Part shown: positions 31,730 through 62,815 of the stretch, in pieces
Position numbering within the stretch: position 1 is the first letter of the stretch
Layout: the number at the start of each line of letters is the position of its first letter
DNA from: Mesorhizobium sp.
Lineage (GTDB): Bacteria; Pseudomonadota; Alphaproteobacteria; Rhizobiales; Rhizobiaceae
Direction: 5' to 3'
Assembly (NCBI GenBank): GCA_004017535.1
Contig: SAJS01000009.1
Span: forward strand, 184,963 to 248,962
Length of the DNA stretch: 64,000 nucleotides
Made by a program: the position numbers and the translations under genes
The notes under the pieces: model-generated
What the model was told of the DNA's origin: nothing
Databases searched by the model: none
Seen by the model: the letters and a program-made list of their open reading frames with translations, nothing else

Positions 31730-32022
31730 GCAAGCAACAATTTCAATGACAAGGGAATTTCTTCTCGAAGACTCAGGCAAACCGGACTATTGGACAAGAA
31801 TTTCTGCCATGGCTGCTTCAGCGATATTTGACCGAGATCAGATTTTTCCAACCAATATTATGGCCTGTCCGCCGAGCCGCATATATTCGCTGCCATCGCC
31901 ACGTATTGAGCGCAGCCGTGTTGCGGCGCTGTTTCTGTCGATTTGATCTTGGACAAATCCATTGCCTTCGCGGAATGCCATCGTATCTCCGTCTATTGTC
32001 AATCCGTCAGGAGTAAAAGCAG
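31730..32022. other. Intergenic region with weak FNR-type sites
   Basis: AT-richer region of 293 bases before the small lipoprotein gene. It holds TTGACCGAGATCAG at 31828-31841 (one mismatch) and TTGATCTTGGACAA at 31943-31956 (two mismatches, 66 bp before the start codon). No convincing gene lies here. Confidence 0.4.
31828..31841. promoter_or_regulatory. FNR/FixK-type site (one mismatch)
   Basis: TTGAC-CGAG-ATCAG lies 181 bp before the lipoprotein gene at 32023. It is further from the gene than the other sites, so its role is less certain. A weaker site at 31943 is better placed. Confidence 0.35.
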
Positions 32023-32226
32023 ATGAAAGTGCTTATCGTCGCTTCGCTAGGCTTGGTGCTTGCCGGCTGCGTCAATGAGAGTCGCTATGTCTCCGCCCCG
32101 GGTCATGCCTACAAGACCGAACCTGGCTGTAAGCGCCATGAAACCCCTTCGAAGTTCGACGCCGACTGCGATTGTCCGAAGAAAGGTTACAAGGGTTTCA
32201 AACAACCGATCCCATGCCCGCTATGA
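32023..32226 (+). CDS. Small lipoprotein, CDxPxxGY family
   Basis: A 67-residue protein with a lipoprotein signal (MKVLIVASLGLVLAGC; lipobox LAGC, lipid-modified Cys16). The mature part is short and Cys/Lys-rich with KFDADCDCPKKGYKGF. The small lipoprotein at 46355-46633 has the related EFDPNCDEPRVGFRNF, so the two belong to one family that I cannot name. AGGAGTAAAAGC precedes the ATG. It is followed by the PRPP synthetase gene after 144 bp. Confidence 0.65.
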   Translation: MKVLIVASLGLVLAGCVNESRYVSAPGHAYKTEPGCKRHETPSKFDADCDCPKKGYKGFKQPIPCPL

Positions 32227-32370
32227 TGCGCGGCGGGAGTCAGGCGAATAATTGCCCGAAACTTCCTCGCATCGGTCTCGTTCGAGATCAGACAGATCGG
32301 CTCCTGGGAAGCGGAGGGCGGGCGTGTCGCGGAGGACGACTCCCATGGCAACCGCATTGGTGAGATAACT

Positions 32371-33348
32371 ATGCGCTTTTTCGCCTTGAAAGGGACAGAT
32401 CAACTGGGTGGAGCTGTCGCGCAAGTCTTGGGCGTTGACCTCGACTCGCATGAAGAACGCGAATTCGAGGATGGCGAGCACAAGGCTCGACCCCTCGTGA
32501 GTGTGTGTGGTGAAGACGTCTATATACTCCATAGCCTCGCAGGCGAGCCCGGGGCGTCCCCTAACGATAAGCTCCTCAGGCTTCTCTTCTTCATCGCGAC
32601 CTGTCGGGAAGACGGCGCTGCGCGCGTCACGGCGATCACGCCCTATCTTGCCTATGCGCGCAAGGAACGGCAGACAAAAGCGCGTGACCCCGTAAGCACG
32701 CGCCACGTGGCGCAGCTGTTCGAGGCGGTTGGCACCGACTGTCTGGTCACGCTCGACGTCCACAATTTCGCGGCGTTTCAAAACGCCTTCCGTTGTCGAA
32801 CGCTCCATCTCGATTCGGGTGCCCTCCTTCAGTCTATGGTGCGCGAACTGGCCGGCGCCGAGCCTATTGTGGTGTTCTCTCCCGATGGCGGCGGCGTGAA
32901 GCGCGCGCAGTTGGTGAAGGAAAGGTGCGAGGCGGCAATGAGCAACGAGGTGGGTTTCGGTTTCATGGAGAAGCGTCGAAGCCGAGGGGTCGTCTCGGGC
33001 GATCTGTTCGCCGGCGATGTGGGCGGGAAAACCGTCTTCCTCGTCGACGATATGATAAGCACAGGCGGCACGATGCTGAGGGCCGCGCGCGCCTGCCGGG
33101 AACGCGACGCCAAGCAAGTCCACGCCGTCGCCACGCACGGTCTGTTCGGCAAGGGTTCCGAAGCACTGTTCACGGACCCGGCCATTGGGCGCATCGTCGT
33201 TACCGACAGCGTGGTGTCGGCATCGAAGGCGGGAACCGGCCGCGAAGCCAAGTTGCAGGTTCTATCAACCGCGCCGCTGATTGCCGAGGCGATCAAGCGC
33301 CTGCATGCGAATGGTTCAATTTCCGAACTGGCCGGGATGGAAAGCTGA
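32371..33348 (+). CDS. Ribose-phosphate pyrophosphokinase paralogue
   Basis: A 325-residue protein of the PRPP synthetase family, which makes phosphoribosyl pyrophosphate from ribose 5-phosphate and ATP. The N-terminal half carries YARKERQTKARDPVSTRHVA, equivalent to the ATP and flexible loop region. The C-terminal half has the PRPP-binding VFLVDDMISTGGTMLRAA. Divergence from the usual YARQDRK motif suggests a second, specialised copy rather than the housekeeping Prs. Its 3' end overlaps the convergent kinase gene by 56 bases. No FNR-type site of its own is seen, so it may be read with the lipoprotein. Confidence 0.85.
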   Translation: MRFFALKGTDQLGGAVAQVLGVDLDSHEEREFEDGEHKARPLVSVCGEDVYILHSLAGEPGASPNDKLLRLLFFIATCREDGAARVTAITPYLAYARKERQTKARDPVSTRHVAQLFEAVGTDCLVTLDVHNFAAFQNAFRCRTLHLDSGALLQSMVRELAGAEPIVVFSPDGGGVKRAQLVKERCEAAMSNEVGFGFMEKRRSRGVVSGDLFAGDVGGKTVFLVDDMISTGGTMLRAARACRERDAKQVHAVATHGLFGKGSEALFTDPAIGRIVVTDSVVSASKAGTGREAKLQVLSTAPLIAEAIKRLHANGSISELAGMES

Positions 33349-34339
33349 ACTCCTCCTTCGCGGCGCCGATGTAGGAGAGCGCCAGGCGCGACCACCTGCT
33401 GGGTTCCCGCACGACCCGGTCGAGCAGATGCGCCAGGCAAAGCCGCGCCCGAAGCAACATCCGGAACGAACCGTAGAAAGCCAGGACCTCATCGTCGGGA
33501 CGGCCGCCTAGGTGCGCCTCGAGCAAATCGAGCAGGACCGGGCGGACCCAGCCTGCTCCCAGCATTGCGCATTCCAGGCCCAGATAGTTGACCTCGTCGT
33601 AGGGATCGATGATCCGTAGGGATCGATCAAACTCGAGGCAGTCTATGACTTGCATCGGCGTGCCGATATACACGTGCTCTGGCCGCAAGTCGCCATGCCC
33701 CTCGACGATGCGGCCTTCCTCGATGCGGGCCTGGATGCGAGGGATTAGCTGCGTAAAGCGCTCGTCGGCGACGTCAAGTACGGGCAGGGCGGCTTCGGAG
33801 ACGCCGAGCCTCGGCTGACCCAGGATGGCTCGAGTGACGGTCTGCTCTCTGATAAGGCTTTCCAGATACAGATTGCCATCCTCGATCTCTGGCGGGGCGG
33901 CCGAGTAAAACTCGGCCATCAGCTCACCCACTTTGCGAATGTCTGCTTCGGTAACAACGCCTTCGCGAAGCCTGATATCCAGCAAGTCGGCCCGAGGCAG
34001 CCGTTTCATCTCGACCAGCCAGTCGACGGTCCGCCCTTGTCCACCAAGATTGAGGCGTCCGTCATGGGTGCATCGCAGCGGAACGACGGAACAATAAGTA
34101 TTGGTCGCAAGCCGCTTGTTCAGCCGCAGTTCCTCTTCGCAGAAGAACCTGCGCCGGTCGAGCGTGCTGAAGTCGAGGAAGGGATATCGGACTGGCTTCT
34201 TCAGTTTGTAGACGCGGTCCTCGGTCAGAAAGACCCAGGACATATGCGTTTGCCGGGCAACAACAAAGGATGCGGCATGAGGATACGATCTTGCATCGCT
34301 CAGGAAGCGTACCTTTGTCGCCAGATCGATCATCGACAA
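33293..34339 (-). CDS. APH-fold kinase, COG2187 type
   Basis: A 348-residue protein with the aminoglycoside-phosphotransferase/protein-kinase fold. The ATP-binding Lys pair is in DRVYKLKKPVRYPFLDF, the catalytic loop is VEGHGDLRPEHVYI, and the metal-binding Asp is in VIDCLEFD. Relatives grouped as COG2187 are often fused to a P-loop kinase domain; here that part is absent. The substrate is unknown, and drug resistance should not be assumed. It is divergent from the helix-hairpin-helix gene with one perfect FNR-type site between them and overlaps prs tail to tail. Confidence 0.8.
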   Translation of the reverse strand: MSMIDLATKVRFLSDARSYPHAASFVVARQTHMSWVFLTEDRVYKLKKPVRYPFLDFSTLDRRRFFCEEELRLNKRLATNTYCSVVPLRCTHDGRLNLGGQGRTVDWLVEMKRLPRADLLDIRLREGVVTEADIRKVGELMAEFYSAAPPEIEDGNLYLESLIREQTVTRAILGQPRLGVSEAALPVLDVADERFTQLIPRIQARIEEGRIVEGHGDLRPEHVYIGTPMQVIDCLEFDRSLRIIDPYDEVNYLGLECAMLGAGWVRPVLLDLLEAHLGGRPDDEVLAFYGSFRMLLRARLCLAHLLDRVVREPSRWSRLALSYIGAAKEEFSFPSRPVRKLNHSHAGA

Positions 34340-34394
34340 TCACTCTTGCAATCGCAATACGTCGAAACAGATCGACCAAACGGCGCGACGCGCC

Positions 34395-34408
34395 TTGATG
34401 CGTATCAA
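34395..34408. promoter_or_regulatory. FNR/FixK-type site (perfect)
   Basis: TTGAT-GCGT-ATCAA matches the consensus fully. It lies 55 bp before the APH-fold kinase start on one strand and 61 bp before the helix-hairpin-helix gene on the other, so it could serve both. Confidence 0.75.
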
Positions 34409-34469
34409 CGAACCCGGCGTTCGTTCGCTTATTTTGCCCTGTCGGACCGATCCGACGAGGTACTTCAGG

Positions 34470-35438
34470 ATGACCATTCAGACCGGCATTCATGCTGTTC
34501 CCGCGCCGACTGTCACTTCCCAAAGCCTGCCGGCCATCAATTTGCTGGTCGCAGGCAGGCTGCGTGACTACGCTGATCTCTTGACCCAGCAAGGCGAGGA
34601 TGGATTTCGCGCCAGAGCCTTTGAGCGCGCAGCCGATGTGATCACGGCTCTCGACCGACCGGTCGATAAGATTCTCTCGCAGGAGGGCCGTGAAGGATTG
34701 ATAGCGCTGCCCGCCGTCGGAACGGGTATCGCCGGCGCGATTGCCGAGATGGTCACCACCGGGCGCTGGTCGCAAATGGACAGGCTGCGGGGAGACCTTG
34801 CGCCGGAGGTTCTGTTCCGGAGCATCCCTGGCATCGGCGCTAAGTTGGCCGGTCGCCTTGCCAAGGATGGCCAGCTGGAGAGCCTGGAGGAGCTCGAATA
34901 CGCCGTTCGGTTCGGCAAGGTTGCTGTGAGGGGCATCGGGCCGCGCCGCCGGCGGATGATCGCCGCAGCCATCGCGGAACGCCTGGGGCGGCCGCTTTTC
35001 GTTTCCGAAAGCACGGTCGCTCGCCCGCCTGTCGCCATGCTTCTGCAGGTGGACCGGATGTATCGCGAGCGCGTGGCCGCGGGGCAGCTGCGCAAGATAG
35101 CGCCGAAGCGTTTCCATCCCACCGGCAGCGCTTGGCTACCCATCCTGCATGCCCGCCATGGCGACTGGCATTTCACCGCTCTGTTCTCAAACACACAGCT
35201 CGCCCACCAACTCAACAAAACGACTGACTGGGTCGTCATCTATTATCACCGGGACGGCGAGCCCGAGGGGCGGTGCACCGTGGTCACGGTCACACGCGGA
35301 CCATCGCTTGGGCAGCGCGTCGTCCGCGGACGAGAAAGTCCCGAAGACGAGGAGGAGATAAGATTAAACGCGGAATCGGAAGTGAGGACGCCGAGACGCC
35401 TGAGCCGGCAATCCCGGTCCGGAAAGTCTGCTTCATAA
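34470..35438 (+). CDS. Orphan polymerase-beta-type helix-hairpin-helix protein
   Basis: A 322-residue protein. Residues about 20-150 match the N-terminal 8-kDa and helix-hairpin-helix part of family X DNA polymerases (LRDYADLLTQQGEDGFRARA, then IPGIGAKLAGRLA and RGIGPRRRRMIAAAIAE). The nucleotidyl-transfer domain with its catalytic Asp residues is missing. A conserved-looking second domain follows (about 190-290, with HARHGDWHFTALFSNTQLAH), then an Arg/Glu/Ser-rich tail that may be frameshifted. It probably binds DNA gaps or ends. The start at 34470 places the FNR-type site at normal promoter distance; the frame is open to 34395. Confidence 0.75.
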   Translation: MTIQTGIHAVPAPTVTSQSLPAINLLVAGRLRDYADLLTQQGEDGFRARAFERAADVITALDRPVDKILSQEGREGLIALPAVGTGIAGAIAEMVTTGRWSQMDRLRGDLAPEVLFRSIPGIGAKLAGRLAKDGQLESLEELEYAVRFGKVAVRGIGPRRRRMIAAAIAERLGRPLFVSESTVARPPVAMLLQVDRMYRERVAAGQLRKIAPKRFHPTGSAWLPILHARHGDWHFTALFSNTQLAHQLNKTTDWVVIYYHRDGEPEGRCTVVTVTRGPSLGQRVVRGRESPEDEEEIRLNAESEVRTPRRLSRQSRSGKSAS

Positions 35439-35773
35439 TCGCCAAGGCACATGAATTCGAGGTCAAGGTGGCCGTCGAGCCGGACGAGGGACGACAACGA
35501 GATTGCGGTTCTCCAGGATCATGATGACGACCCCGTGTGTGAAGAGCTTTGGCTCGCTGATCTCGGTGCTCTCTCTCGACGAGCAGATCGACCTCGTGGC
35601 TTTGCATTGGATCGGCCGGGATGATGGCCAGGCGGGAGATTGGCAAGAAGTTCGTCGGCAGGCCGATGCCCACAACGAACACACGGCTGGCTATCTTTGC
35701 GGCAACCCCTCCTCGGCGATCACCTGGAGGCCGGACTTGATGCTCTCGGCCTGTCTTGCTCCGACTGACCGAC
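35386..35773 (+). pseudogene. DUF3775-type gene with three frameshifts
   Basis: Pieces of one protein are spread over the three forward frames. They are IPVRKVCFIIAKAHEFEVK (about 35415-35480), DNEIAVLQDHDDDPVCEEL (from 35493), SLISVLSLDEQIDLVALHWI running to GYLCGNP (about 35553-35708), and LLGDHLEAGLDALGLSCSD ending at 35773. In that order they reproduce a small DUF3775-type protein of unknown function. Each junction needs a one- or two-base slip; the last is in a run of C. Three lesions favour a real pseudogene over sequencing error. It follows the helix-hairpin-helix gene directly. Confidence 0.6.
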
Positions 35774-35774
35774 C

Positions 35775-35788
35775 TTGATGTGCATCAA
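35775..35788 (+). promoter_or_regulatory. FNR/FixK-type site (perfect)
   Basis: TTGAT-GTGC-ATCAA, a perfect match, ends 52 bp before the universal stress protein gene at 35841. That distance fits a class II activator site with the transcript start about 10 bp upstream of the coding region. Confidence 0.78.
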
Positions 35789-35840
35789 AGCGCGAATTTC
35801 TCGACAGTGCTGATCTACCGGCCTGTCATGGAGTTCAGGC

Positions 35841-36668
35841 ATGATCTACACGACAATATTGGTTCAACTCGACATCGATGCACCGGCAACGCCGAGGCTG
35901 ATATTCGCGCAGGAGATCGCCAGGAAATTCGAGGCAGATCTCATCGCGGTGACGGCAGCCGAAGCTTCCACGCTGATGTCGCCGAGCGAAGACTCGCTGG
36001 CTGCGGCAGAGGTCTTGCGTCAGCGGACCCTCGATATCGAGGATCGTATCAAGCAGCTCAAGGAAGAATTTCTTGCCGTCGTAGGCAACGACGAGCGCGC
36101 ATCATGGCGCGCCGAGCTTGACGATCCCACGAGCGCTGTTGCCCTGCACGCTAGAGCGGCCGATCTGGTGATCACCGGCGCGCCCGCGGCGGCTGCCGCC
36201 GGCAACTTCCAAAGGACAATGGATCCGGGCGCGCTGGTCCTTTCGGCCGGCAGGCCGGTTTTGTTCGCAGCCGATGATCTCCGACCCTTTGGCGGCGAGC
36301 GGATAATCGTTGCCTGGAAGGATTGCCGCGAGTCCCGGCGGGCAGTGGTCGATGCCATGCCCTTCCTGTGCGAGGCCAAGGAGGTGACCGTTTTCAGTGC
36401 TACCGAGGAAGGGACAGTCGCTGCTCGAGAAGGGGCGGCGGACATCGTCCGTTTCCTGATAAAGCACGGTGTGAATGCCCTATCCCAAGTGCTGGAACGC
36501 GGAGGACCCGCCGTTGGTGACACCATCGTCGCCAAGGCCGATGAAATCGGAGCCGATCTCGTCGTGGCCGGCGGCTACGGCCATAGCAGGATTCGCGAAT
36601 GGGCATTCGGAGGCGCGACGCGATCGCTGCTCCATGCCGGCGCCTTGCACAGGCTGCTGTCGAACTGA
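35841..36668 (+). CDS. Universal stress protein, tandem-domain type
   Basis: A 275-residue protein of the UspA superfamily with two Usp-like halves. The second half keeps the nucleotide-loop-like GGYGHSRIREWAFGGATRSL. The first half is divergent (ILVQLDIDAPATPRLIFAQE). Tandem Usp proteins support survival under oxygen or energy limitation. It is the intact member of three usp genes in this island; the others, at 48464 and 59781, are frameshifted. A perfect FNR-type site precedes it. Confidence 0.88.
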   Translation: MIYTTILVQLDIDAPATPRLIFAQEIARKFEADLIAVTAAEASTLMSPSEDSLAAAEVLRQRTLDIEDRIKQLKEEFLAVVGNDERASWRAELDDPTSAVALHARAADLVITGAPAAAAAGNFQRTMDPGALVLSAGRPVLFAADDLRPFGGERIIVAWKDCRESRRAVVDAMPFLCEAKEVTVFSATEEGTVAAREGAADIVRFLIKHGVNALSQVLERGGPAVGDTIVAKADEIGADLVVAGGYGHSRIREWAFGGATRSLLHAGALHRLLSN

Positions 36669-36862
36669 TCAGCGACAACTTGCTCCTGTGCTTGCCGGCG
36701 GTAGACAATCCTTAGCCGAAGCAGTGCCCGACAACATCAAACGAGCCCGAAGACGGCCGATCTGAGATCAAGAACCGCAATGGCTCCGCTTGCAGCCGGC
36801 CGAGTTTCGATCGCAGAGCATCGTCAGATGTAGCTTGGTTGACGTGGATCGGCGCCATTGCC

Positions 36863-36876
36863 TTGACGCAGATCAA
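36863..36876 (+). promoter_or_regulatory. FNR/FixK-type site (TTGAC variant)
   Basis: TTGAC-GCAG-ATCAA ends 79 bp before the chosen start of the HlyD-family gene (36956). It would lie inside the coding region if the earlier possible start at 36839 were used, which argues for the later start. Confidence 0.65.
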
Positions 36877-36955
36877 CGTTCGCCCGCCACATCCGGATGA
36901 GAGTAAAAGCAAGGCGCTGGCGCCCGTCGTCTTCTTGGATAATAGGAATCGACGA

Positions 36956-38077
36956 ATGCCCAACATTGACGTCATCGATGACGGTACTGAGTTGCTCCCT
37001 CCGAATGACCGTTCGACGAGCCGAATGCTCGTGCCGAGCCAGCCGGAACCCAGCCTTCCGGAGACCGTTCCCCCCGCCGTGTATCGAGGGCGCCGGCTAT
37101 GGCTCGCGTTGGCGCTGGTTGCGGTCGCCGGCGCGGCGGCAGGCGGATATTGGTGGCTGCATGCCGCTCCTGGGCTGCCCGCTGGTATCGCCTCGGGCAA
37201 CGGCAGGGTCGAGGCAGACGAGATCGACATCGCGGCCAAGTTCAGCGGTCGTATCGCTGCGCTCCTCGTTGATGAGGGAGATGTCGTTCGCGCCGGCCAG
37301 GTGGTCGCGCGGATGGACACCCAAGACCTTGAGATGTCGCTCCGCAAAGCCGAGGCACAGGTGCTTGGGGCCAATCGGATGCTCGACGAGGCGCGCGCAG
37401 GCGTCGAGCAACAGAAGGCCCAAGCCAAGCTCGCCGAGCAGCAGCTCACCCGCTCGATTGTCCTCGTCGACAAAGGCTATGCGACAGCCGAGATTCTCGA
37501 CCAGCGTCAGCAGCAGATGAGCGCCGCCAATGCCGCGCTGGCTGCAGCCAATGCGCGCGTCGGGCAGGCCGAACAGACGCTGGCGGCCGCCAGCCACGAT
37601 GTCGACCTCTATCGGATCAACATCGCCGACAATTCGCTGGTCACCCCACGCGACGGGCGCGTTCAATATCGCCTCGCCAATGTCGGTGAAGTGATTGGCG
37701 CCGGCGGCAAGGTGTTGACCATGATCGACACAGGCTATGTTTATATGGACATTTTCCTGCCTACGGCGGAAGCGGGCCGCACGACTGTAGGCAGCGTTGC
37801 GCGCATCGTGCTTGACGCGGCACCTCAATCGCCAATCCCGGCCAAGGTCGTCTTTGTCTCCGGAGAGGCGCAGTTCACGCCGAAGACAGTGGAGACCAAG
37901 GCGGAACGCGACAAGCTGATGTTCCGGGTCCGCGTGCGCATTGACCCCGACTATCTGCGCACTCATGCGGCGGAGATGAGCTCCGGGCTTCCCGGGCTCG
38001 CTTACGTTCGCCTCGACGGCGGTGCCGAGTGGCCGACCTTTCTCGCGTTAGGGCGGACCGATGAGCCATCCCGCTGA
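36956..38077 (+). CDS. HlyD-family adaptor of an ABC exporter
   Basis: Membrane fusion protein of 373 residues. It has one membrane anchor ([21 protein letters not shown], about 50-70), a biotinyl-lipoyl-like domain ([20 protein letters not shown]), a coiled-coil hairpin of about 110 residues rich in Ala/Gln, and a beta-barrel domain. It is the first gene of a three-gene exporter with an RbbA-like ATPase and an ABC-2 permease, the YhiI-RbbA-YhhJ arrangement of Escherichia coli. Its 3' end overlaps the ATPase gene by 17 bases. Start: AGGAA upstream of 36956. Confidence 0.87.
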
Positions 38078-40792: not shown

Positions 40793-40796
40793 TGCC

Positions 40797-41921: not shown

Positions 41922-42038
41922 GGTCGGCGCAGCCGCGGCAGCGTATGACGTTCATTACCTTGGTCAGGTTTGGGCAAGCACGGGCAGGGCTGTTCGCGGT
42001 CTAGCGACGCCCGCCGACGGGACGTGTTTCGGCTCATC

Positions 42039-42052
42039 TTGACGGGGATCAA
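42039..42052 (+). promoter_or_regulatory. FNR/FixK-type site (TTGAC variant)
   Basis: TTGAC-GGGG-ATCAA ends 53 bp before the start of the PEP synthase gene at 42106, the same spacing as before the intact universal stress protein gene. Confidence 0.72.
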
Positions 42053-42105
42053 AGTCGCCAAAAGCGAGAGGCGGCACAGTGGGCTTTGGTTTCGGAGGTG
42101 AGATC

Positions 42106-49964: not shown

Positions 49965-49968
<4 letters not shown>

Positions 49969-52448: not shown

Positions 52449-52560
52449 GATACGCGAACGCGCTCGTGAACCACCTTGCTCGGCGCGATTGCTCCGCCTT
52501 CGCACGCCATCCCGTCCGGCAGTCGCCGAACGTTGCTCCGCGCGGCGGCTGGCGCCAAAT

Positions 52561-52574
52561 CTGATTCAAATCAA
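52561..52574 (+). promoter_or_regulatory. FNR/FixK-type site (one mismatch)
   Basis: CTGAT-TCAA-ATCAA ends 55 bp before the sugar-binding protein gene at 52630, which is the normal spacing in this island. Confidence 0.5.
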
Positions 52575-52629
52575 AGAAACGGCCACCGGAGAAGAGCAAT
52601 GTAAAGGCCCACTCGGAGGGAGGAATGAA

Positions 52630-53892: not shown

Positions 53893-54018
53893 TGACAGGC
53901 AGGGCTGGGCCGCGGGCGCGGCCCGGTCCTCATGGGCTGCGGCACGATGTCGAAACAACACCGCTGGCGATTGCGTAAAATCGCCGATCGTAAAGCTACC
54001 GAGCGGGGAATTTGAGGA

Positions 54019-54921: not shown

Positions 54922-55811
54922 CCCAGCCGGCGCCTGCTGGAATCGTGAGGCCGAAGGGATTGCGTCACCGCTTGATGCGAATCCTTCTGTTTGCGGTGCT
55001 CGGCACCTTCTGCCTCTATTATCTGCTGCCGCTGTTCATCATGATGGCCACCTCGCTGAAGTCGCTCGACGAAATTCGAACCGGGACACTTGTGAGCTTG
55101 CCCAGGCAAATCACCTTCGACGCCTGGCTGAAGGCCTGGGGCTCGGCCTGCGTCGGCGTGCGGTGCGACGGGCTCAAGCCCTATATGTGGAACTCCGTCC
55201 TGATGGTGGTTCCCGCGGTGGCGATCTCGACCGCGCTAGGCGCCGTCAACGGGTACGCGCTGACCAAATGGCGCTTCCCAGGCGCCAACACGATCTTTGC
55301 GCTAATGCTGTTCGGGGCCTTCATTCCGTTCCAGGTGGTGCTGCTGCCGATGGCCCGCACGCTGGGCGTGCTGGGGCTGGCCGGTTCGGTCACTGGGCTC
55401 ATTCTCGTTCACACCGTCTACGGCTTGGCCTTCACGACGCTGTTCTTCCGCAACTTCTTCATGGGGGTATCGGACGGCATCGTGCAGGCCGCCAAGATCG
55501 ACGGCGCCGGATTCTTCGGCATCTTTTCCCAGATCGTGCTGCCCATGGCGCTGCCCGCGATCGTTGTCACGGTCATCTGGCAGTTCACCCAGATATGGAA
55601 TGACTTCCTGTTCGGCGTGGCCTTCACAGTCGGCGACAGCAATCCTGTGACTGTCGCGCTCAACAACGTCGTCAATACCTCAACGGGCGTGAAGGAATAC
55701 AATGTCGACATGGCGGCTGCGATCATCGCAGGGTTGCCGACGCTGCTCGTTTACGTATTGGCCGGCAAGTACTTCGTTCGCGGATTGGCTGCGGGAGCCG
55801 TCAAAGGATAA
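54918..55811 (+). CDS. ABC sugar transporter permease 2
   Basis: A 297-residue MalG/GtsC-type permease with six spans. The EAA loop is GIVQAAKIDGAGFFGIFSQI. I chose ATG 54918, which overlaps the stop of permease 1; the open frame extends to 54408 only as a shadow of the previous gene. The insert CVGVRCDGLKPY carries two Cys residues in the first periplasmic loop. The ATPase gene follows 3 bp later. Confidence 0.92.
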   Translation: MTQPAPAGIVRPKGLRHRLMRILLFAVLGTFCLYYLLPLFIMMATSLKSLDEIRTGTLVSLPRQITFDAWLKAWGSACVGVRCDGLKPYMWNSVLMVVPAVAISTALGAVNGYALTKWRFPGANTIFALMLFGAFIPFQVVLLPMARTLGVLGLAGSVTGLILVHTVYGLAFTTLFFRNFFMGVSDGIVQAAKIDGAGFFGIFSQIVLPMALPAIVVTVIWQFTQIWNDFLFGVAFTVGDSNPVTVALNNVVNTSTGVKEYNVDMAAAIIAGLPTLLVYVLAGKYFVRGLAAGAVKG

Positions 55812-55814
55812 ATC

Positions 55815-56933
55815 ATGGCCAGCATCCGGCTCGACAAGGTATGGAAGAAATTCGGCACGACCGAGGTGATCAAGGGGATCGACATGTCGATCCGCGAGGG
55901 CGAGTTCATCGTGCTGGTGGGCCCCTCGGGATGTGGGAAATCCACGCTGCTCAACCTGATCGCGGGCCTCGAAACTCTGAGCGGCGGTGAGATATTCATC
56001 GGCAGCGATCTGGTCAACGACATCCCGCCTAAAGACAGGGATATCGCGATGGTGTTCCAGTCCTACGCGCTTTATCCGACCAAGTCCGTGCGCGACAACA
56101 TGAACTTCGGCATGGTGACACGTCACGTGCCGCAGAGTGAGCAAACGGTGGCACTTGCCGAAGTGGCCGGGTTGCTCCACATCGAAACCTTGCTCGACCG
56201 CAAGCCGGGCCAGCTTTCCGGCGGCCAGCGCCAGCGGGTCGCGATGGGCCGTGCCCTGGTGCGCAAGCCGGCGGTCTTTTTGTTCGACGAGCCGTTGTCG
56301 AACCTGGATGCCAAGCTGCGCATCGAAATGCGCACCGAGATCAAGCGGCTCCATCAGCGCCTCGGCAAGACGATCGTCTATGTGACCCACGACCAGATCG
56401 AGGCGATGACGCTGGCCTCGCGCATCGCCGTGATGGACAACGGCCATATCCGCCAGTTCGGGTCGCCCGAGGATATTTATGAGAGGCCCGTCGATCTCTT
56501 CGTCGCGGGTTTCGTCGGATCTCCTTCGATGAATCTGTTCAAAGGACGCGTGGTCGAACAGAGCGGCCTCCGGCTACAGGTGGACGATCCGGCGGGAGCA
56601 GTCCACTTTCCAATCCCAAGAAACCTCCATGATGCCGCAAGGCCTTATCTCGGCCGCGAACTCATACTCGGCTTGAGGCCGGAGGCGATGGTTCGAGAGG
56701 GCGCGCACCGGCCTGGATCGGAGACCTTCTCGTTCGACCGGACGATCGACGTCGTCGAACCCACCGGCCCGGATACACTGCTTGTGTTCACCCTGGGCGG
56801 GATCGAGGCGATCGGACGGGTCGATCCGCAAGACAAGATTTCCGTGGGAACCAAATTCCGCTTCGATGTCGATATGGGTCGCGCCAAGATGTTCGATCCG
56901 GTGACAGGTCTTCATTTGGCGAGCGTCCATTGA
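55815..56933 (+). CDS. ABC sugar transporter ATPase (MalK/UgpC type)
   Basis: A 372-residue ATPase that energises the sugar importer. Walker A is [13 protein letters not shown], the signature [14 protein letters not shown], Walker [13 protein letters not shown] and the switch His is in VTHDQIEAM. The C-terminal regulatory part carries the TOBE-like domain typical of CUT1 transporters. It overlaps the PfkB gene, whose TTG start lies inside the stop region. Confidence 0.93.
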
Positions 56934-57877
56934 AGTCGATCCTGACCATAACACTCAATCCGGCGGTCGATATATCGAGCGAGACGGAGACGGTGCGCCC
57001 GGTCCGCAAGGTCAGAACCTCCAATGTCAGGTATGATCCCGGCGGCGGCGGTATCAACGTCGCGCGCGTGATCACAGCTCTGGGAGGAGAGGCCGAAGCC
57101 TATTTTCTGGCGGGAGGAGAAACGGGCTCGCTGTTGACCCGCCTGCTGCAAGCCGAAGGGATAGCCAGTCACCTCATCCCGATCCAAGGTCAGACGAGGA
57201 TCAGCTTTATGGTTCGGGAGCGCAGCACCGGCCTCGAATATCGTTTTGTCCCCGAAGGACCTCCCGTGCAGCCTCGGGAATTGGAGCCTTGTCTGGATCT
57301 CGTTGCATCCCATAAGGGACAGTACGTCATCGCGAGCGGCAGCCTCCCCACGGATGCGCCTCCCGACATCTACGCTCGAATGGCGAAGCTGACATCTGCT
57401 CGCGGCGCGAAATTCATTCTCGACAGTTCCGGCATCGGGCTTCAAACGACGCTGAAGCAGTCGCGGTTGTATCTGGTGAAACCGAGCCTTGGGGAATTGG
57501 AGCAGTTCGTCGGCCGCAAGCTCGACGAGGCCGGTGTTCGCCAGGCTGCATCCGACATCGTGGCCAGCGGCGCGGCCGAGTTGGTTGCGATCACCATGGG
57601 GGTCGACGGCGCGCTCCTCGCCAGTGCCCGGGGTGTCCTGCGTGTGCCTGCGATCCATGTGCGCGTGCGCTCCGCCCTCGGCGCTGGCGACAGCTTCCTT
57701 GGAGCGATGGTTTGGGCACTTTCAGAAGGGCGGACTCCGGAGGAGGCATTCCGCTTGGGCATCGCCGCCGGTGCCGCCGCCGTCATGAAACCGGGCTTTG
57801 AGCTTTGCCGCCGCGAGGAAGTCCTGGCTCTCAACGCGGCCGCCTTATCCGCCGGCAGCGAGGGTCAAACGCGCTGA
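56930..57877 (+). CDS. pfkB: PfkB-family 6-phosphofructokinase
   Basis: A 315-residue sugar kinase of the ribokinase superfamily, close in motif order to Escherichia coli PfkB. It opens with [20 protein letters not shown], then [34 protein letters not shown] lies in the middle and the catalytic Asp is in [15 protein letters not shown] near residue 250. It phosphorylates fructose 6-phosphate, although tagatose 6-phosphate or fructose 1-phosphate are possible. It starts with TTG overlapping the ATPase stop. Rhizobia usually run glucose through the Entner-Doudoroff route and often lack PfkA, so this kinase in a transporter operon is notable. Confidence 0.87.
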
Positions 57878-57905
57878 GTGAGGCGCGCAGCACGTGCCCA
57901 AATTT

Positions 57906-58898
57906 TCAAGACAAGAATTCTGCCCGGGACAATGCGACGGCTGCCCCACGCAGGCCCGCGTCAAGCGCCTTGATCACATAGATCGGTATCGGTGCCAGGA
58001 AGGACGAAAGGCGGCCCTTTGATTGATACTCCCTGTGGAAGAATGCCAGACGGAAAGCCGTCGCTTCCGACGGGTCGAACACTCTTGCGGGGATGCCACC
58101 GCCGAGATAGACGCCGCCGCGCGCGCTGTAGGCAAGGGCCATGTCCCCAGCAAAGCGGCCCAGCCATTTCTCGAGGTAGCCGAGGGACTCAAGCGCGAGA
58201 CGATCCTCGCCGTGCAGCGCCTGTTCCACGATCTCAGGCGCTGACGTCAGTTCCGCCGCGACACCCCGCGTCTCCGCCAATGCCGTGTAAATCCTGACAA
58301 GGGCCGGACCGGAAATCAGACGTTCCGCCGAGATGTGTGCCTCGTCCTTCGCGATGAGCTTGATAAGCGAGAGTTCATCCGCATCTTCGGCTGCGAAGGA
58401 AATGTGGCCGCCTTCGCTGGGAACGGCGATCCACCCCGATGGAGAGAAGACAAGCCCGGCAACTCCAAGGCCAGTGCCTGGTCCAAGCACCACCTTGGGC
58501 GCGTGATCAACCGGGTCTCCTCCCCCGATCTTGAGAAGATCGTGTGGGCCCAGGAAGGGCAGGACAAGCGCGAGCGCTTCGAAATCATTGACCGCGTGGA
58601 CGTATTTCGCGCCAGTCGCCAGGCACAGATCCTTGCGCGAGAAGGACCAGGGCAGGTTGGTCATGCGGATCGTCTCGTCCGACACAGGGCCGGCAATGGC
58701 GAAGCCGGCAAGGGACGGCCGGTGCGGGATGCAATCCAGATAAGCTTTGATCGTGGCTTGGAGCGAAGGAAACATGTCGCACCGGAAGGCGGCGAAATGG
58801 TCGATCGTGAGTTCGTCGATGTCAGCGATCGCAAATCGTGCGTTGGTGCCGCCTATGTCGGCCACAAGGGCGGTGCGGGATTTGATGGTGGAAGCCAT
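57906..58898 (-). CDS. glk: Glucokinase
   Basis: A 330-residue glucokinase that phosphorylates imported glucose. Seen: the phosphate-binding LVADIGGTNARFAIADI near the N-terminus, the sugar-contact TGAKYVHAVNDFEALAL, and the adenosine-side GPGTGLGVAGLVF and VPSEGGHISFA. It is convergent with the transporter-pfkB operon, 28 bp apart, so uptake, phosphorylation and the PFK step are encoded together. A possible FNR-type site lies 108 bp upstream of its start. Confidence 0.92.
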   Translation of the reverse strand: MASTIKSRTALVADIGGTNARFAIADIDELTIDHFAAFRCDMFPSLQATIKAYLDCIPHRPSLAGFAIAGPVSDETIRMTNLPWSFSRKDLCLATGAKYVHAVNDFEALALVLPFLGPHDLLKIGGGDPVDHAPKVVLGPGTGLGVAGLVFSPSGWIAVPSEGGHISFAAEDADELSLIKLIAKDEAHISAERLISGPALVRIYTALAETRGVAAELTSAPEIVEQALHGEDRLALESLGYLEKWLGRFAGDMALAYSARGGVYLGGGIPARVFDPSEATAFRLAFFHREYQSKGRLSSFLAPIPIYVIKALDAGLRGAAVALSRAEFLS

Positions 58899-59006
58899 GA
58901 TTGCCGTGCTCGATCCAAGATTACGGTACGATCAGGCGTTAGAGGCGCGTTTCGCCAAGACACCCGGACCAAAAACAAACGCTTAGCATAGGCGTCCGAC
59001 GCCATC

Positions 59007-59020
59007 TTGATTCATGTCAA
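59007..59020 (-). promoter_or_regulatory. FNR/FixK-type site (TTGAT/GTCAA)
   Basis: TTGAT-TCAT-GTCAA lies 108 bp upstream of the glucokinase start, just beyond the end of the second L,D-transpeptidase gene. The match is good but the distance is long. Confidence 0.45.
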
Positions 59021-59047
59021 AAGGCCATTCGTCCTGCGCGTGCGCCG

Positions 59048-59473
59048 TCAGCGCCTGATCGTTATCACGGTTGATCCCCGGCCATACGATCTCACCAGAC
59101 CAAACAGGATTCGGGCATTGTCTGGATGAAGCCGGACGCATCCGTGTGAAACCGGGCGGCCCAGTCGTCTGATCTCCCAGGTGCCGTGAATTGCATACCC
59201 GCCATAGAAGAAGATCGAGTAGGGCATAGGAGCACTGTCGTATTTGCTTGAATACCAGACCCGCTCAAGCCGGATGGGATGGAATTGCCCGGTTGGGGTA
59301 CGATACCCCCGCCGGGCGGTGGACACCAACCATCTGTAGTTAAAGAGACCGTCGACTTTCACGGTCATGGTTTGCTCGGAGAGATTGATCAGGATGCCAA
59401 GCTGTGCCGCGTGAGCGGCGCGAGGGCACCACATCGCAACCATAAAAACAAGCACGAATGCGGACAGGCGCAC
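59048..59473 (-). CDS. L,D-transpeptidase, YkuD domain, second copy
   Basis: A 141-residue periplasmic enzyme starting at GTG. The signal peptide is MRLSAFVLVFMVAMWCPRAA, then HAAQ. Nucleophile Cys112 is in VSHGCVRLHPDNA, and the catalytic His in YAIHGTWEI. It shares the VWYSSKYDSAPMP signature with the copy at 9778-10233 but is shorter and ends in GSTVITIRR. An FNR-type site lies upstream, unlike the first copy, which suggests cell-wall remodelling under low oxygen. Confidence 0.88.
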   Translation of the reverse strand: MRLSAFVLVFMVAMWCPRAAHAAQLGILINLSEQTMTVKVDGLFNYRWLVSTARRGYRTPTGQFHPIRLERVWYSSKYDSAPMPYSIFFYGGYAIHGTWEIRRLGRPVSHGCVRLHPDNARILFGLVRSYGRGSTVITIRR

Positions 59474-59547
59474 GACGGCAATCCTTCGGCCAGGGAATTC
59501 TGAGAGTAATTTGCCGCAATCGATGACGATCGACGCGGAGTCGCGCC

Positions 59548-59561
59548 TTGATCCAAATCAT
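59548..59561 (-). promoter_or_regulatory. FNR/FixK-type site (one mismatch)
   Basis: TTGAT-CCAA-ATCAT ends 74 bp upstream of the second L,D-transpeptidase gene. Confidence 0.5.
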
Positions 59562-59695
59562 TTTTTGGTTGCAGTGGCGGAAGCGGCGCAAGCACGGAAC
59601 CCTCCGAATGTGCAATACGCTATGTCGGTCTGATCGCCGAGGGGCTGGTTAAGTACCTACCTGAAGTAGCGGGTCGTATGCGCGAATGTAGCGGT

Positions 59696-59709
59696 TTGAT
59701 CCAACTCAA
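59696..59709 (+). promoter_or_regulatory. FNR/FixK-type site (one mismatch)
   Basis: TTGAT-CCAA-CTCAA ends 71 bp before the frameshifted universal stress protein gene at 59781. With the site at 59548 it makes a divergent pair serving the two outward-facing genes. Confidence 0.5.
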
Positions 59710-59780
59710 AGCGCTTCCGCGAGTCTGGCGGTTCAATGCCGGATGCCTCTGAGACGTCTAAAGCGGGATGGGAGCGAGCG

Positions 59781-60561
59781 ATGAGCTACAAGGATATTCT
59801 GGTCTTTCTCGACGGTTCCACCGACAACGACGCGCGAATGGAGTTTGCCTTCTCGCTGGCACGAGCTCATGGCGCAAGGCTGACGGGTGTCGACGTCGAT
59901 GCGGCTGCTGCCTTTGAGGGTGAGTGGGCCGAGCGCGCGAAATCGCTTGCAGGAGACATTCCATGCCGGCGCCAATCGCTCGGACGTGCGCGTCCGATAT
60001 AAAATCGCGGATCGGGATGCGGCGGGATGGAAGGACTTCTACGCGCACTATGCGGATCTGCTGATCGCTACGCAGCCCAACCAGGAGGCTTTTGGCAGAG
60101 TCCTCTCCGGAGTGCCTGAGCAGGTCCTGATCACGGCGGGGGTGCCGATGATCGTGCTGCCGCAAGGATGGAGGCCGCGGCCCATCGGCAAGGAAGTCGT
60201 AATCGCGTGGTCGCCCAGCGCTCAGGCCACGCGCGTGATGCACGATGCCATGCCGATCCTCGCCAGCGCGCAGAAAGTGACAGCGTTTGCATTCGACCCG
60301 CCCGCCGATAGGGAGGACGCGGACCTTGAGATGCTTCGTGAGCATCTGCTTGCCCATGGGGTCAAGATCGATGTCGACAAGTGGTCTAACGCCGGCGACC
60401 TGTCGCCGATCGAGGCATTGTTTGCCTCTCCTGCATTGGAGGAGGCAGATCTTATCGTGGCCGGGGCCTACAGTCATTCTCGGTTCCGCGAAGCCTTGTT
60501 CGGCGGAATGACCAAATCCTTGCTCCAGCAATTCTCACTGCCGGTGCTGGTGTCGCACTGA
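59781..60561 (+). pseudogene. Tandem universal stress protein gene with one frameshift
   Basis: The first part (from ATG 59781) reads MSYKDILVFLDGSTDNDARM and continues to EGEWAERAKS near 59945. There the frame must change by one base to continue as RLQETFHAGANRSDVRVRY, IADRDAAGWKDFYAHYADLL and, at the end, VAGAYSHSRFREALFGGMTK with stop at 60561. Joined, it gives a tandem Usp protein of about 260 residues like the intact one at 35841. Without the shift the product stops after 73 residues. The cause may be a lesion or a sequencing error. Confidence 0.75.
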
Positions 60562-60693
60562 ACGGGTGCAAACCGGGAAACGCAGACTTGGCGACTGCCG
60601 CAGGCACTCGGTTGTTCTGCTCGCGCGATCACATCGATCAGCAGAAAAGAGCAACGGTCCTACAGCGAAGCGGGGATTGAGAATTCGACGAAG

Positions 60694-61320
60694 TCACCCG
60701 CGCTCATCGGGCAAATCCATGGCGATTGCCATCCTTATAAGGTCTGGGAGGCTCTTGGCCTGCATCTTCGACATGACGTTGGCGCGATGAATCTCCACAG
60801 TTCGCGGGTTGATGTCGAGATCATAGGCAATGGTCTTGTTCGACAGTCCCCCGACCAAGCCCGACAGGACTTCACGCTCCCGCTCCGACAATTGCTCGAG
60901 TCGGGACAGAAGTGCTGAAGTGTCATCATCTTCCTTGGCAGTTCCGTCGAAACTGCTTGCCGCGCGTTTGATGGCATCGACCAGCACATCGTCCTCGAAC
61001 GGTTTTTCGATGAAGTCGATGGCACCTGCTCTCATCGCTGCCACGGCCATCGGTACATCGCCGCGACCTGTCACGACGATTGAGGGCATCATTGCCCCCA
61101 TCTCGTTAAGCCGCTCCAGGAGTTCAACACCGTTCATGTCGGGCATGCCCAGATCGGTGACGAGACATGCGTTGCCCGCGCCGGGGGCGGCAGCAAGGAA
61201 ACTTGTCGCTGAATCGTGAACACGCACGTTGAAACCCATCACACTCAGCAGGAATCCGAGGGACCTGCGGACCGGCTCCTCATCGTCCACGATGTGGACC
61301 ACATAGGTGTCAGTTTGCAC
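60694..61320 (-). CDS. fixJ: FixJ-type response regulator
   Basis: A 208-residue regulator. The receiver has Asp12/Asp13, phospho-acceptor Asp56 ([11 protein letters not shown]) and the conserved Lys in [11 protein letters not shown]. The LuxR-type helix-turn-helix domain (about 140-203) contains [20 protein letters not shown] and [19 protein letters not shown]. In rhizobia FixJ, phosphorylated by FixL at low oxygen, activates fixK and nifA. Its start overlaps the 3' end of the kinase gene by 11 bases, so the pair is one operon with fixL first. Neither fixK nor nifA is in the window. Confidence 0.87.
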
Positions 61321-62815
61321 TTGGCGCCTCTTCCGTCGCTATAGGTAGGGACAACCGGAACGTCGCCCCGCCGTTTCCATTTCTGCGAGCCCCTATCTCG
61401 CCGCCGTGCGCCTCGACGATGCGCTTGGAGATTGAAAGCCCGATTCCCATGCCGCTGGCCTTGCTGGTGACGAAAGGCTGGAACAGATTGGCCGCGATGT
61501 CGTTCGAGATTCCCGGTCCGGTGTCCGCCACTTCGATCAACATATGTCCGTCGTCGCGCGTCGTGCGGACAATCAACTCGCGCTTGGCGCTGTCGCGCAT
61601 CGCCTCCATGGCATTGCGCATCAAGTTGATCAAAACCTGTTGGATTTGAACCCGGTCGACCAGAACCTCCCCGGTATCAGGAGCGAATTCGAAGACCGAG
61701 CGCACGCCTTGCTCGCGAGATCCGACGAGCGCCAAAGCACCTGCCTCCTCGATCAGCTTGTGCAGATCCTCGGGCGACCTCTCCGTCTCGCCGCGCGTGA
61801 CGAATTCGCGCAGGTGGCGGATAATACCTCCGGCTCTAAGCGACTGCTTCGCTATCTCCTCGAGCGCGACCGTTAGAGGCTCGGCTCTCGTTTCATCCAG
61901 AGCCTTTAGAAGGCGGACGCAGCCTTGCGAATAGTTTGCAATGGCCGACAGAGGCTGGTTGAGCTCGTGGGCGAGCGTCGAGGCCATTTCGCCAAGTTCG
62001 TTCAGGCGGGCGAGGCGGGCCAGTTCGCTTTGGAGTTCCTGCAACCGCGCTTCAGATTCCTCACGTTCAGTGAGGTCTTGAATGAAGCCGGTGAAGAACC
62101 TCCCCGCGGCGGATTTCATCTCGCCGACAGACAGCTTCATCGGAAAAGTCGATCCATCCTTCCTGCGTCCGACGACCACGCGGTCCACACCAATAATGCG
62201 CTTCTCACCGGTCGCCAGATATCGCTCTATGTAGCCGTCATGCTGGCTTTGATAAGGCTCCGGCATAAGAAGGCGGACATTGCGGTTGAGAACCTCCGCC
62301 TGCGTATAGCCGAACTGTCGAACCGCCGCGGCGCTGAAGGAGGTGATCAGTCCCTTCTCGTCGATCACGACGGTAGCATCGGGAACTGTATCCAAGATCG
62401 ATCTGAGATGGGCTTCTCGCGATATTAGCTCTGCTTCGGTTCTATCAAGCGCCCGGCGCGCATGATGCAACATCTCTCCCATCCAGGCGATCGTGAGCCC
62501 GACTAGTCCGAACACAGCAGCCTGCAACCAACCGACTTGGTCGAAGCCGGTGAAGTAGGCCGCGGAGGCGAAGGAAAGAAGGGCCGCGACCACGCCAGGG
62601 CCGATGCCGCCCAGGATAGCCGCGATCAGGATAGCAGGAATGAAAAGCACGAAGGCAAGCGTAGTCCCGAGGATACTGCTCAATCCGAGCCGAATGACAA
62701 ACACGACGGCCACCACAGCCATCGCAAGCAGATATCCGTTCAGGCTTTCAAAGCGACGCGAAAACGCAGCCTGAAGCAAGCGGCCCTGCAGTCCCGGGAT
62801 GTCCCTCGCTGGCAC
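61310..62815 (-). CDS. fixL: FixL-type oxygen-sensing histidine kinase
   Basis: A 501-residue membrane kinase. Four hydrophobic segments (about 26-110) anchor it. A haem-type PAS domain follows (about 135-255), with His192 in [16 protein letters not shown] at the place of the FixL haem ligand, and Arg198 and Arg212 (RIIGVDR) at the oxygen-contact positions. HisKA contains His283 ([16 protein letters not shown]), and the ATPase domain ends with [16 protein letters not shown]. Conservation of the haem pocket supports true oxygen sensing rather than a generic PAS kinase. Coupled to fixJ, it is the likely top of the control chain for the island. Confidence 0.88.

What the first reader, a model, noticed from the sequence alone, without database searches (positions are those of the whole stretch)
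31828..62815. A 28-kb low-oxygen survival island: repeated FNR/FixK sites across diverse operons, ending in fixLJ
Sites of form TTGA(T/C)-N4-(A/G)TCAA, or with one mismatch, were read before nearly every unit: 34395, 35775, 36863, 42039, 46704, 48201, 48348, 51085, 51575, 52561, 59007, 59548 and 59696. Most end 52-79 bp before the start codon. I noticed none of this quality in the first 31 kb. The genes behind them (Usp, PpsA with CBS-BON, nitroreductase, hibernation factor, PfkB, L,D-transpeptidase, exporter) fit energy-saving dormancy. FixL/FixJ close the cluster. The mix parallels the mycobacterial DosR regulon, which also has Usp, CBS, nitroreductase-like and PfkB genes, but under a different regulator. 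Co-control by FixLJ-FixK is inference.
Basis: partly seen in the sequence, partly recalled or inferred. Interest (0 to 1): 0.88.

Follow-up and report, generated by a model that had tools for sequence, protein, structure and literature searches.

The report
Mobile low-oxygen survival gene island
A block of stress and energy-saving genes in a rhizobium-like soil bacterium carries closely spaced, evolutionarily protected switches for the low-oxygen regulators FixK/FNR plus its own oxygen sensor; the type is known from Bradyrhizobium and Burkholderia, and this copy looks transferable and built from shuffled parts.

Summary
The window has 9 perfect TTGAY-N4-RTCAA sites, all between 34395 and 63082; 0.25 are expected in the island from the rest of the genome. 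None of the nine lies inside a gene. Against a 90-95% identical copy, 0 of 112 fixed site letters changed, versus 11.6% of flanking bases. A -10-like hexamer sits 21-22 bp downstream, the spacing of FNR/FixK-activated promoters. The sites are therefore very probably real FixK/FnrN promoters. The gene list and a true FixL/FixJ are confirmed.

The picture must be widened. The transferable unit is about 26.1-63.3 kb, is patchy in its genus and sits in unrelated flanks in another species. The genome has two further site clusters of this type, and genes of one Rhizobium plasmid island are spread over all three. FixK and FnrN are encoded elsewhere, so FixLJ-specific control is unproven.

The kind is known: Bradyrhizobium diazoefficiens bll4644-blr4659 is microoxia-induced, and Burkholderia has the lxa locus. 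The freshest lead is an operon pairing a hibernation factor (HPF-cold-shock) with a "host attachment" protein whose predicted fold matches Balon. Three genes carry broken frames here.

The parts
26145..63320 (.). transferable unit: the stretch shared at 90-95% identity with same-genus species G226, which carries it between unrelated flanks; G226 lacks 46836-47526 (nitroreductase) and 48893-49893 (CheB-like) and has about 5.7 kb extra between 56918 and 56939
   Evidence: L173, L153 and L154 collinear from 26145 to 63320; the flanks fetched (4.1 kb left, about 15 kb right) match neither the window nor the 20 kb left of it; GC 60.8% vs 64.2% in 1-26144
32371..33348 (+). ribose-phosphate pyrophosphokinase (PRPS)
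   Evidence: Pfam
33293..34333 (-). APH-like kinase partner, convergent and overlapping with PRPS
   Evidence: 47% to the L035 homologue; PRPS and this gene occur in the same 7 of 121 order genomes
34395..34408 (+). perfect FixK/FNR site before the HHH gene
34470..35438 (+). helix-hairpin-helix (HHH_8) protein
   Evidence: Pfam
35775..35788 (+). perfect FixK/FNR site before Usp1
   Evidence: -10 score only 0.0
35841..36668 (+). universal stress protein (Usp1)
   Evidence: Pfam
36863..36876 (+). perfect FixK/FNR site before the exporter
36956..41921 (+). HlyD / RbbA-type ABC / ABC-2 permease exporter; the RbbA frame is broken near 38.7 kb in this genome, open in the two relatives aligned
42039..42052 (+). 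perfect FixK/FNR site before ppsA
42106..44511 (+). PEP synthase (PpsA)
   Evidence: Pfam; 74-75% to the best plasmid homologues
44508..45188 (+). CBS-BON protein, overlapping the ppsA stop
   Evidence: Pfam
46704..46717 (-). one-mismatch site before a small ORF and the LPG-synthase-TM gene (45270-46633)
46942..48144 (-). nitroreductase and an unknown protein (47545-48144)
   Evidence: no Pfam hit for the second
48201..48214 (-). perfect FixK/FNR site before 47545-48144 / nitroreductase
48348..48361 (+). perfect FixK/FNR site before Usp2
48464..48885 (+). Usp2, frame broken in this genome
49965..50441 (-). Host_attach / baeRF family 12 protein; Balon/aeRF1 middle-domain fold
   Evidence: Pfam; model and fold searches
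50471..51025 (-). hibernation factor: S30AE plus cold-shock domain
   Evidence: Pfam; PDB 9t0z chain 9
51085..51098 (-). perfect FixK/FNR site before the HPF-CSD / baeRF12 / CheB-like operon
51575..51588 (+). one-mismatch site before the unknown 51699-52133
52561..52574 (+). one-mismatch site before the sugar ABC transporter operon
   Evidence: -10 score about 0
52630..57877 (+). solute-binding protein, two permeases, ATPase and PfkB sugar kinase
   Evidence: Pfam
57906..58898 (-). glucokinase
   Evidence: Pfam
59007..59020 (-). perfect FixK/FNR site before glucokinase
   Evidence: -10 at this spacing is poor
59048..59473 (-). L,D-transpeptidase (YkuD)
   Evidence: Pfam
59548..59561 (-). one-mismatch site before YkuD
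   Evidence: -10 poor
59696..59709 (+). one-mismatch site before Usp3
59781..60561 (+). Usp3, frame broken in this genome
60694..61320 (-). FixJ response regulator
   Evidence: Pfam; PDB 5xso
61310..62815 (-). FixL heme-PAS histidine kinase with DUF4118 membrane part
   Evidence: Pfam; PDB
63791..63867 (-). tRNA-Arg (CCT) just outside the unit

Best explanation
This is a transferable low-oxygen survival island of about 37 kb (26.1-63.3 kb). Its promoters each carry a FixK/FnrN site at the activating position. When oxygen falls, FixL (heme-PAS) phosphorylates FixJ, which raises FixK; FnrN acts directly at lower oxygen. Either protein then switches on about 13 units at once: ribosome hibernation (HPF-CSD with a Balon-like baeRF12), Usp proteins, PEP/sugar metabolism (PpsA, sugar uptake, PfkB, glucokinase), PRPP supply, export and wall change. 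Shown by computation: sites, spacing, sequence conservation, gene families, FixL/FixJ identity, and the same unit between other flanks in a second species. Inferred: binding, oxygen response, FixJ raising FixK, and the benefit to survival.
For: Site density 36-fold over the rest of the genome. 9 of 9 perfect sites outside genes. 0 of 112 fixed site letters changed against G226 versus 188 of 1615 flanking bases (chance about 1e-6); the five one-mismatch sites compared keep their odd letter. TANNNT hexamers peak at 21-22 bp after the site: 11 of the 23 occurrences found at gaps 8-41 over 55 own perfect sites, and 59 over 228 related (not independent) sites. FixL/FixJ match known structures, and residues aligned with the heme-pocket positions are kept. 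The same unit lies between unrelated flanks in G226. In B. diazoefficiens the genes of the same annotation bll4644, bll4645, blr4646, blr4652, blr4655, blr4658 and blr4659 are microoxia-induced (PMC6515984, passages read). In R. leguminosarum activating anaeroboxes lie at -32 to -34 (PMC7888657, passages read).
Against: No expression or binding data exist for this organism. FixK and FnrN are encoded elsewhere, so control by this FixLJ is only one option. Of the seven B. diazoefficiens genes named, only blr4652 is marked as a FixK2 target in the passages read; PEP synthase, glucokinase, PfkB, Usp, host attachment and CBS genes are not. Three genes (RbbA, Usp2, Usp3) have broken frames here that are open in the relatives aligned: decay or sequencing error. 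No PF00589 integrase lies in the window and no end repeats were found, so how it moves is unknown. The -10 boxes at 35775, 52561, 59007 and 59548 score 0 or less. 5 of 22 loci with an island-type FixL show no other gene of the pool. Among 23 loci with the closest PpsA, 13 have no perfect site, and the Methylocystis plasmid locus has none.
Confidence: 0.82

Rival explanations
1. The sites are real but are driven by direct FnrN sensing, with FixLJ merely a neighbour that answers to other genes or to the other FixK branch.
For: FnrN-type proteins with an N-terminal cysteine cluster are present (genes on C11, C10 and C44: L009, L017, L018). FnrN and FixK share one site (PMC4999443, passages read). 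A second FixL of the common type is present.
Against: 40 of 40 FixL loci examined (22 island-type, 18 of the 75 rows of the common type) hold at least one perfect site, at about 2 per 10 kb, which suggests functional linkage.
Confidence: 0.35
2. The island is a decaying passenger: the promoters are relics and key genes are already broken.
For: Three frames are broken in this genome but open in the relatives aligned; patchy distribution in the genus.
Against: Sites and most genes are conserved against G226. The short length differences could also be assembly error (the window ends with its contig).
Confidence: 0.15
3. The sites belong to another Crp/FNR member with similar letters (a denitrification-type regulator) rather than FixK/FnrN.
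For: The genome has 14 HTH_Crp_2 matches over the Pfam cut-off.
Against: The consensus TTGAT-N4-ATCAA is the anaerobox of FixK/FnrN (PMC7888657), and another site cluster of the same genome holds fixG, a FixK-like and an FnrN-like gene.
Confidence: 0.1

Closest known systems
Bradyrhizobium diazoefficiens microoxia-induced cluster bll4644-blr4659 (PMC6515984)
   Same: Usp, host attachment protein, CBS protein, nitroreductase, PEP synthase, glucokinase and 1-PfkB kinase genes with neighbouring locus numbers, induced at 0.5% O2; nitroreductase blr4652 and bll4651 are marked FixK2 targets.
   Different: In the passages read the other genes are not marked FixK2 targets, no FixLJ is named inside the cluster and no mobility is described. 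Sequence orthology to the window was not tested; the match is by annotation.
Burkholderia cenocepacia lxa locus, BCAM0275-BCAM0323 (PMC6127331, PMC9104464)
   Same: A patchy cluster (absent from strain H111) with several Usps, a BON protein and a PfkB kinase, low-oxygen induced, needed for anoxic persistence, already compared with DosR.
   Different: 50 genes, six Usps, Hsp20 inside; the FixLJ homologues have distant locus numbers (BCAL2210/2211). Its sequences were not compared here.
FnrN/FixK regulon of Rhizobiales (PMC4999443)
   Same: Same site; FixLJ and PHB synthase are listed as targets.
   Different: The main text has no mention of universal stress proteins or phosphoenolpyruvate (0 occurrences each).
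DosR/DevR regulon of mycobacteria and OsdR of Streptomyces (PMC5069765)
   Same: Usp, nitroreductase and (OsdR) pyruvate phosphate dikinase genes under a hypoxia-linked two-component system.
   Different: Other regulator and other DNA box; no DevR-like box in the window at <=2 mismatches.
Balon / baeRF ribosome hibernation factors (PMC10901736, PMC6514570)
   Same: aeRF1-type fold, gene next to an HPF gene, hypoxia link of Rv2629.
   Different: Here only the single middle-type domain (158 aa), in an operon with an HPF-cold-shock fusion behind a FixK/FNR site.

Membership tests
FixL/FixJ oxygen-sensing pair | heme-PAS domain with FixL-type pocket residues, joined to HisKA and HATPase | tested here: met
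   the residues aligned with the His of the 'HD.Y' stretch and with the two Arg (replaced by Ala in the chains 2cmn and 1y28) are kept; that these are the heme residues is recalled
FixL/FixJ oxygen-sensing pair | FixJ receiver plus LuxR-type DNA-binding domain, adjacent gene | tested here: met
   60694-61320 overlaps fixL
FixL/FixJ oxygen-sensing pair | oxygen-dependent kinase activity | not testable with these tools
   needs protein assay
FNR/FixK class II promoters | perfect or near-perfect TTGAY-N4-RTCAA above background | tested here: met
FNR/FixK class II promoters | -10 element 21-22 bp after the site | tested here: met
   as a group; poor at 35775, 52561, 59007 and 59548
FNR/FixK class II promoters | binding and low-oxygen activation | not testable with these tools
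   no expression data for this organism
lxa-type low-oxygen locus | several Usps with BON, PfkB and Hsp20 genes in one cluster | tested here: inconclusive
   Usp x3, BON and PfkB in the window; no Hsp20 among the window ORFs scanned; the Hsp20 match of the own genome found here is on C11
lxa-type low-oxygen locus | sequence orthology to BCAM0275-0323 | not tested
   those sequences were not fetched
DosR/DevR regulon | DevR box before the genes | tested here: not met
   0 boxes at <=2 mismatches in the window; 3 at <=3, against 8 for the reversed control; motif recalled
Integrative genomic island | same unit between different flanks and patchy among relatives | tested here: met
Integrative genomic island | integrase and direct end repeats | tested here: not met
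   no PF00589 match in the window (other recombinase families were not searched); no shared word of 11 bases between 25701-26400 and 63151-63900; no repeat of the tRNA gene's end (one 12-base match outside the tRNA)
Balon / baeRF hibernation factor | aeRF1-type middle-domain fold | tested here: met
Balon / baeRF hibernation factor | three-domain chain that binds the ribosomal A site | tested here: not met
   only one domain is present (158 aa); binding not testable here

The most novel reading that the evidence does not exclude
Low-oxygen dormancy in rhizobia-like bacteria is spread as a mobile, reshuffling pool of genes. The pool is held together only by a shared FixK/FnrN promoter site and often travels with its own FixLJ sensor, so any host with FixK/FnrN can run it at once. 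Its core includes a hypoxia-switched ribosome-hibernation pair, an HPF-cold-shock fusion and a one-domain Balon-like 'host attachment' protein, the proteobacterial counterpart of Rv0079/Rv2629 in mycobacteria.
Probability: 0.4. Interest if true: 0.72.

Novelty: new member of a known kind. Interest (0 to 1): 0.47.

Why it matters
If right, surviving without oxygen is a portable trait: a bacterium that already has FixK or FnrN can gain it by acquiring one island. That gives a simple way to read low-oxygen fitness of soil and nodule bacteria from sequence, by counting class II anaeroboxes around Usp/PpsA/FixLJ clusters. It also makes the function of the 'host attachment protein' (Host_attach) family directly testable as ribosome hibernation.

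Tried and rejected
Chance: rejected by shuffles, by the genome rate and by conservation in G226.

DosR-type control: 0 boxes at <=2 mismatches in the window. In six actinobacterial PpsA loci only two weak boxes were found (L054, L075), so a shared DosR-box ancestry has no support. A Streptomyces locus (L072) does hold PpsA beside CBS, Hsp20-like and cation-ATPase matches.

Integration at the tRNA-Arg: in G152 the stretch ending at window 24730 adjoins the tRNA directly. In G154 the cyclase-FHA gene (to 25858) lies between, with another insertion. In the five other loci fetched for this question (L168-L172) no tRNA was found in the stretch taken. The place may be an insertion hot spot, but no end repeat or PF00589 integrase was found; tRNA-site integration is not claimed.

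RbbA split as programmed frameshifting: rejected, because the two relatives aligned have the frame open.

APH-like protein: no Pfam hit and no useful PDB match. CheB-like 48937-49968: no homologue in the loci searched. Rfam: nothing in 25800-64000 besides the tRNA at E <= 0.01. Host_attach genes against sites: 7 of 12 homologues have a <=1-mismatch site within 300 bp of the first start, versus 64 of 199 other genes in the same loci; too weak to claim alone.

Literature: the primary lxa paper (doi 10.1038/ismej.2013.36) was not held. Two narrow searches for an island of this description found no paper; no claim of absence from print is made beyond them.


Full report
1. The sites. The pattern TTGAY-N4-RTCAA occurs perfectly 9 times in the window, at 34395, 35775, 36863, 42039, 48201, 48348, 51085, 59007 and 63069, and 20 times at <=1 mismatch; 100 shuffles gave 3.8 +/- 2.1, largest 10, at <=1 mismatch. 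The genome of 6.86 Mb has 55 perfect and 643 near sites, against 2 and 168 for the reversed pattern. From the rest of the genome, 0.25 perfect sites are expected in 26145-63320 (36-fold excess, P about 9e-12 without correction for choosing the stretch) and 3.4 at <=1 mismatch, where 18 are seen; two of the 18 (37715, 49358) are inside genes.

2. Are they promoters? Three tests say yes. (a) Spacing: counting TANNNT hexamers at 34 possible gaps after the 55 own perfect sites (both directions) gives 5 at 21 bp and 6 at 22 bp, with no other gap above 2. Over 228 sites of relatives (many homologous, so not independent) it is 39 and 20, then 7 at 23 bp and at most 4 elsewhere (first seen). With a scored -10, 23 of 30 island sites and 18 of 25 non-island sites pass at 21-22 bp, against 4-15 of 30 and 1-14 of 25 at control gaps. 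(b) Footprint: against the 90-95% identical copy in G226 (14 sites compared), the eight fixed letters changed 0 of 112 times. The four changes at the Y/R positions all stay within the consensus, while flanking bases, some of them coding, changed 188 of 1615 times (chance about 1e-6). (c) Place: none of the 9 perfect sites lies inside a gene, although genes fill 87% of 32371-63320. The spacing agrees with activating anaeroboxes mapped at -32 to -34 in R. leguminosarum 3841 (PMC7888657, passages read).

3. The genes. Pfam confirms PRPS, HHH_8, Usp, HlyD and ABC exporter parts, PpsA, CBS-BON, LPG-synthase-TM, nitroreductase, HPF (S30AE) fused to a cold-shock domain, Host_attach/baeRF12, CheB-like, a sugar ABC transporter, PfkB, glucokinase, YkuD, FixJ and FixL. 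FixL is closest to solved FixL kinases, and its PAS to S. meliloti and B. japonicum FixL; FixJ to 5xso. Left of the sites the unit also holds two alpha/beta hydrolases and a second two-component system.

4. Not one island but three. 30 of the 55 perfect sites fall in three clusters of about 110 kb in total: this window (9), C8:3.7-37.7 kb (12) and C11:855-903 kb (9). Of the proteins scanned there (a part of each cluster), C8 encodes an amino-acid permease, ornithine carbamoyltransferase, GroEL, cation ATPase, Usp-type proteins, PHB synthase, FtsH and a metal transporter. C11 encodes FixG, cation ATPases, an acyl-CoA-ligase/GNAT protein, a FixK-like and an FnrN-like protein and a second FixL. 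Genes of one Rhizobium leguminosarum plasmid island (L035; 15 perfect sites in 42 kb) have their best matches spread over all three: ppsA, prs, the APH-like gene, the exporter and glk (36%) in the window; GroEL, FtsH, BON-domain, host attachment and PRTase genes on C8; APH-ATPase, MgtA, Hsp20 and the two long Usps on C11. Only these stretches, L007 and C18:1-12000 of the own genome were compared in that call, not the whole genome.

5. Mobility and shuffling. In G226 the stretch 26145-63320 is collinear, apart from two missing pieces (nitroreductase, CheB-like) and about 5.7 kb extra, and is embedded in flanks that match neither the window nor the 20 kb to its left. Other genus members hold the same genes in other orders, with 3-15 perfect sites in the stretches fetched (G124, G130, G146, G127, G224, G125; 1 in a second G130 stretch). 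In 121 genomes of the order PpsA is found in 21 (12 of them at >=62% identity); PRPS and the APH-like gene are found in 7 each, the same 7 including this one, adjacent and convergent in 6 (at the E-value limits set there). Neither of the two genus mates nor the one family mate in that set has any of the three genes. HPF-CSD occurs in 3 of 37 genus genomes including this one (G226 was not in that sample). A FixL of the island type (>=62% identity over nearly the full length) is in 22 of 146 genus genomes (my reading of the rows; 5 rows at 49-56% were left aside). Loci around 22 such copies from 21 other genomes hold 80 perfect sites in 418 kb; 14 of the 22 have two or more other pool genes and 5 have none. 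18 loci of the common FixL type (of 75 rows) hold 73 in 329 kb; the reversed control is 0 in both. Both densities are about 25 times the own-genome mean of 0.08 per 10 kb; the other genomes' own means were not measured. So a link between FixLJ and site-rich stretches is general in the genus rather than special to the window. PpsA of this type is also plasmid-borne in Methylocystis, Burkholderia, Phenylobacterium (there with fixLJ), Cupriavidus and Rhizobium. The four plasmid loci read have 0, 7, 15 and 2 perfect sites (L033-L036), so the Methylocystis one lacks them. Among 80 PpsA loci of genome contigs, the 23 with >=62% identity hold 25 perfect sites in 437 kb, the 57 others 6 in 927 kb (reversed control 0 and 3). 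But the 25 are concentrated: 5 of the 23 loci have two or more and 13 have none, and taxonomy is confounded with identity.

6. Regulators. One FixK-like protein without and three FnrN-type proteins with an N-terminal cysteine cluster were read, all outside the window; other Crp-family members were not classified. FixK and FnrN recognise very similar sites (PMC4999443, passages read). The best model is therefore FixLJ to FixK plus FnrN, but FixJ control of this genome's fixK was not tested.

8. Against the reading. Three frames (RbbA, Usp2, Usp3) are broken in this genome and open in the relatives aligned. Some -10 boxes are poor. No mover gene of the family searched and no end repeats were found. 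No expression data exist for the organism.

9. Prior knowledge. In B. diazoefficiens bll4644 (Usp), bll4645 (host attachment), blr4646 (CBS), blr4652 (nitroreductase), blr4655 (PEP synthase), blr4658 (glucokinase) and blr4659 (PfkB type) are up at 0.5% O2; of these seven only blr4652 is marked a FixK2 target (PMC6515984, passages of Table 2 read). The lxa locus of B. cenocepacia is the betaproteobacterial case, and its likeness to DosR was already noted (PMC6127331, passages read). So the kind is known. The additions here are the three-cluster layout, the transferable unit with a FixLJ, the spacing and footprint evidence, and the hibernation pair.

Noticed in passing
window 38.7 kb, 48.6 kb, 59.9 kb: RbbA, Usp2 and Usp3 frames are broken in this genome while the relatives aligned keep them open: early decay or assembly error.
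   Followed up: partly
window 32371-34333: PRPS and an APH-like kinase form a convergent pair found in exactly the same 7 of 121 genomes of the order; a PRTase gene lies beside them in 4 of 6 relatives fetched. Function unknown.
   Followed up: partly
window 20480-20565: chrB-a cis-regulatory RNA before a chrB and chromate transporter pair.
   Followed up: no
window 24.7-26.1 kb and 63.8 kb: Possible insertion hot spot beside tRNA-Arg(CCT): G152 has no island there, G154 has a different insert.
   Followed up: partly
C8:3.7-37.7 kb (L005, L006) and C11:855-903 kb (L008-L010): Two further site-dense low-oxygen clusters in the same genome.
   Followed up: partly
L035 (R. leguminosarum pRL22b4): 15 perfect sites in 42 kb around Usp, GroEL, FtsH, MgtA, Hsp20, ppsA and prs genes.
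   Followed up: partly
L072 (Streptomyces nymphaeiformis): A PpsA at 61% identity beside several CBS-domain matches, an Hsp20-like and a cation-ATPase match; no DevR-like box at <=2 mismatches.
   Followed up: no
window 48937-49968: A stand-alone CheB-like methylesterase behind the hibernation genes, with no homologue in the related loci searched.
   Followed up: no
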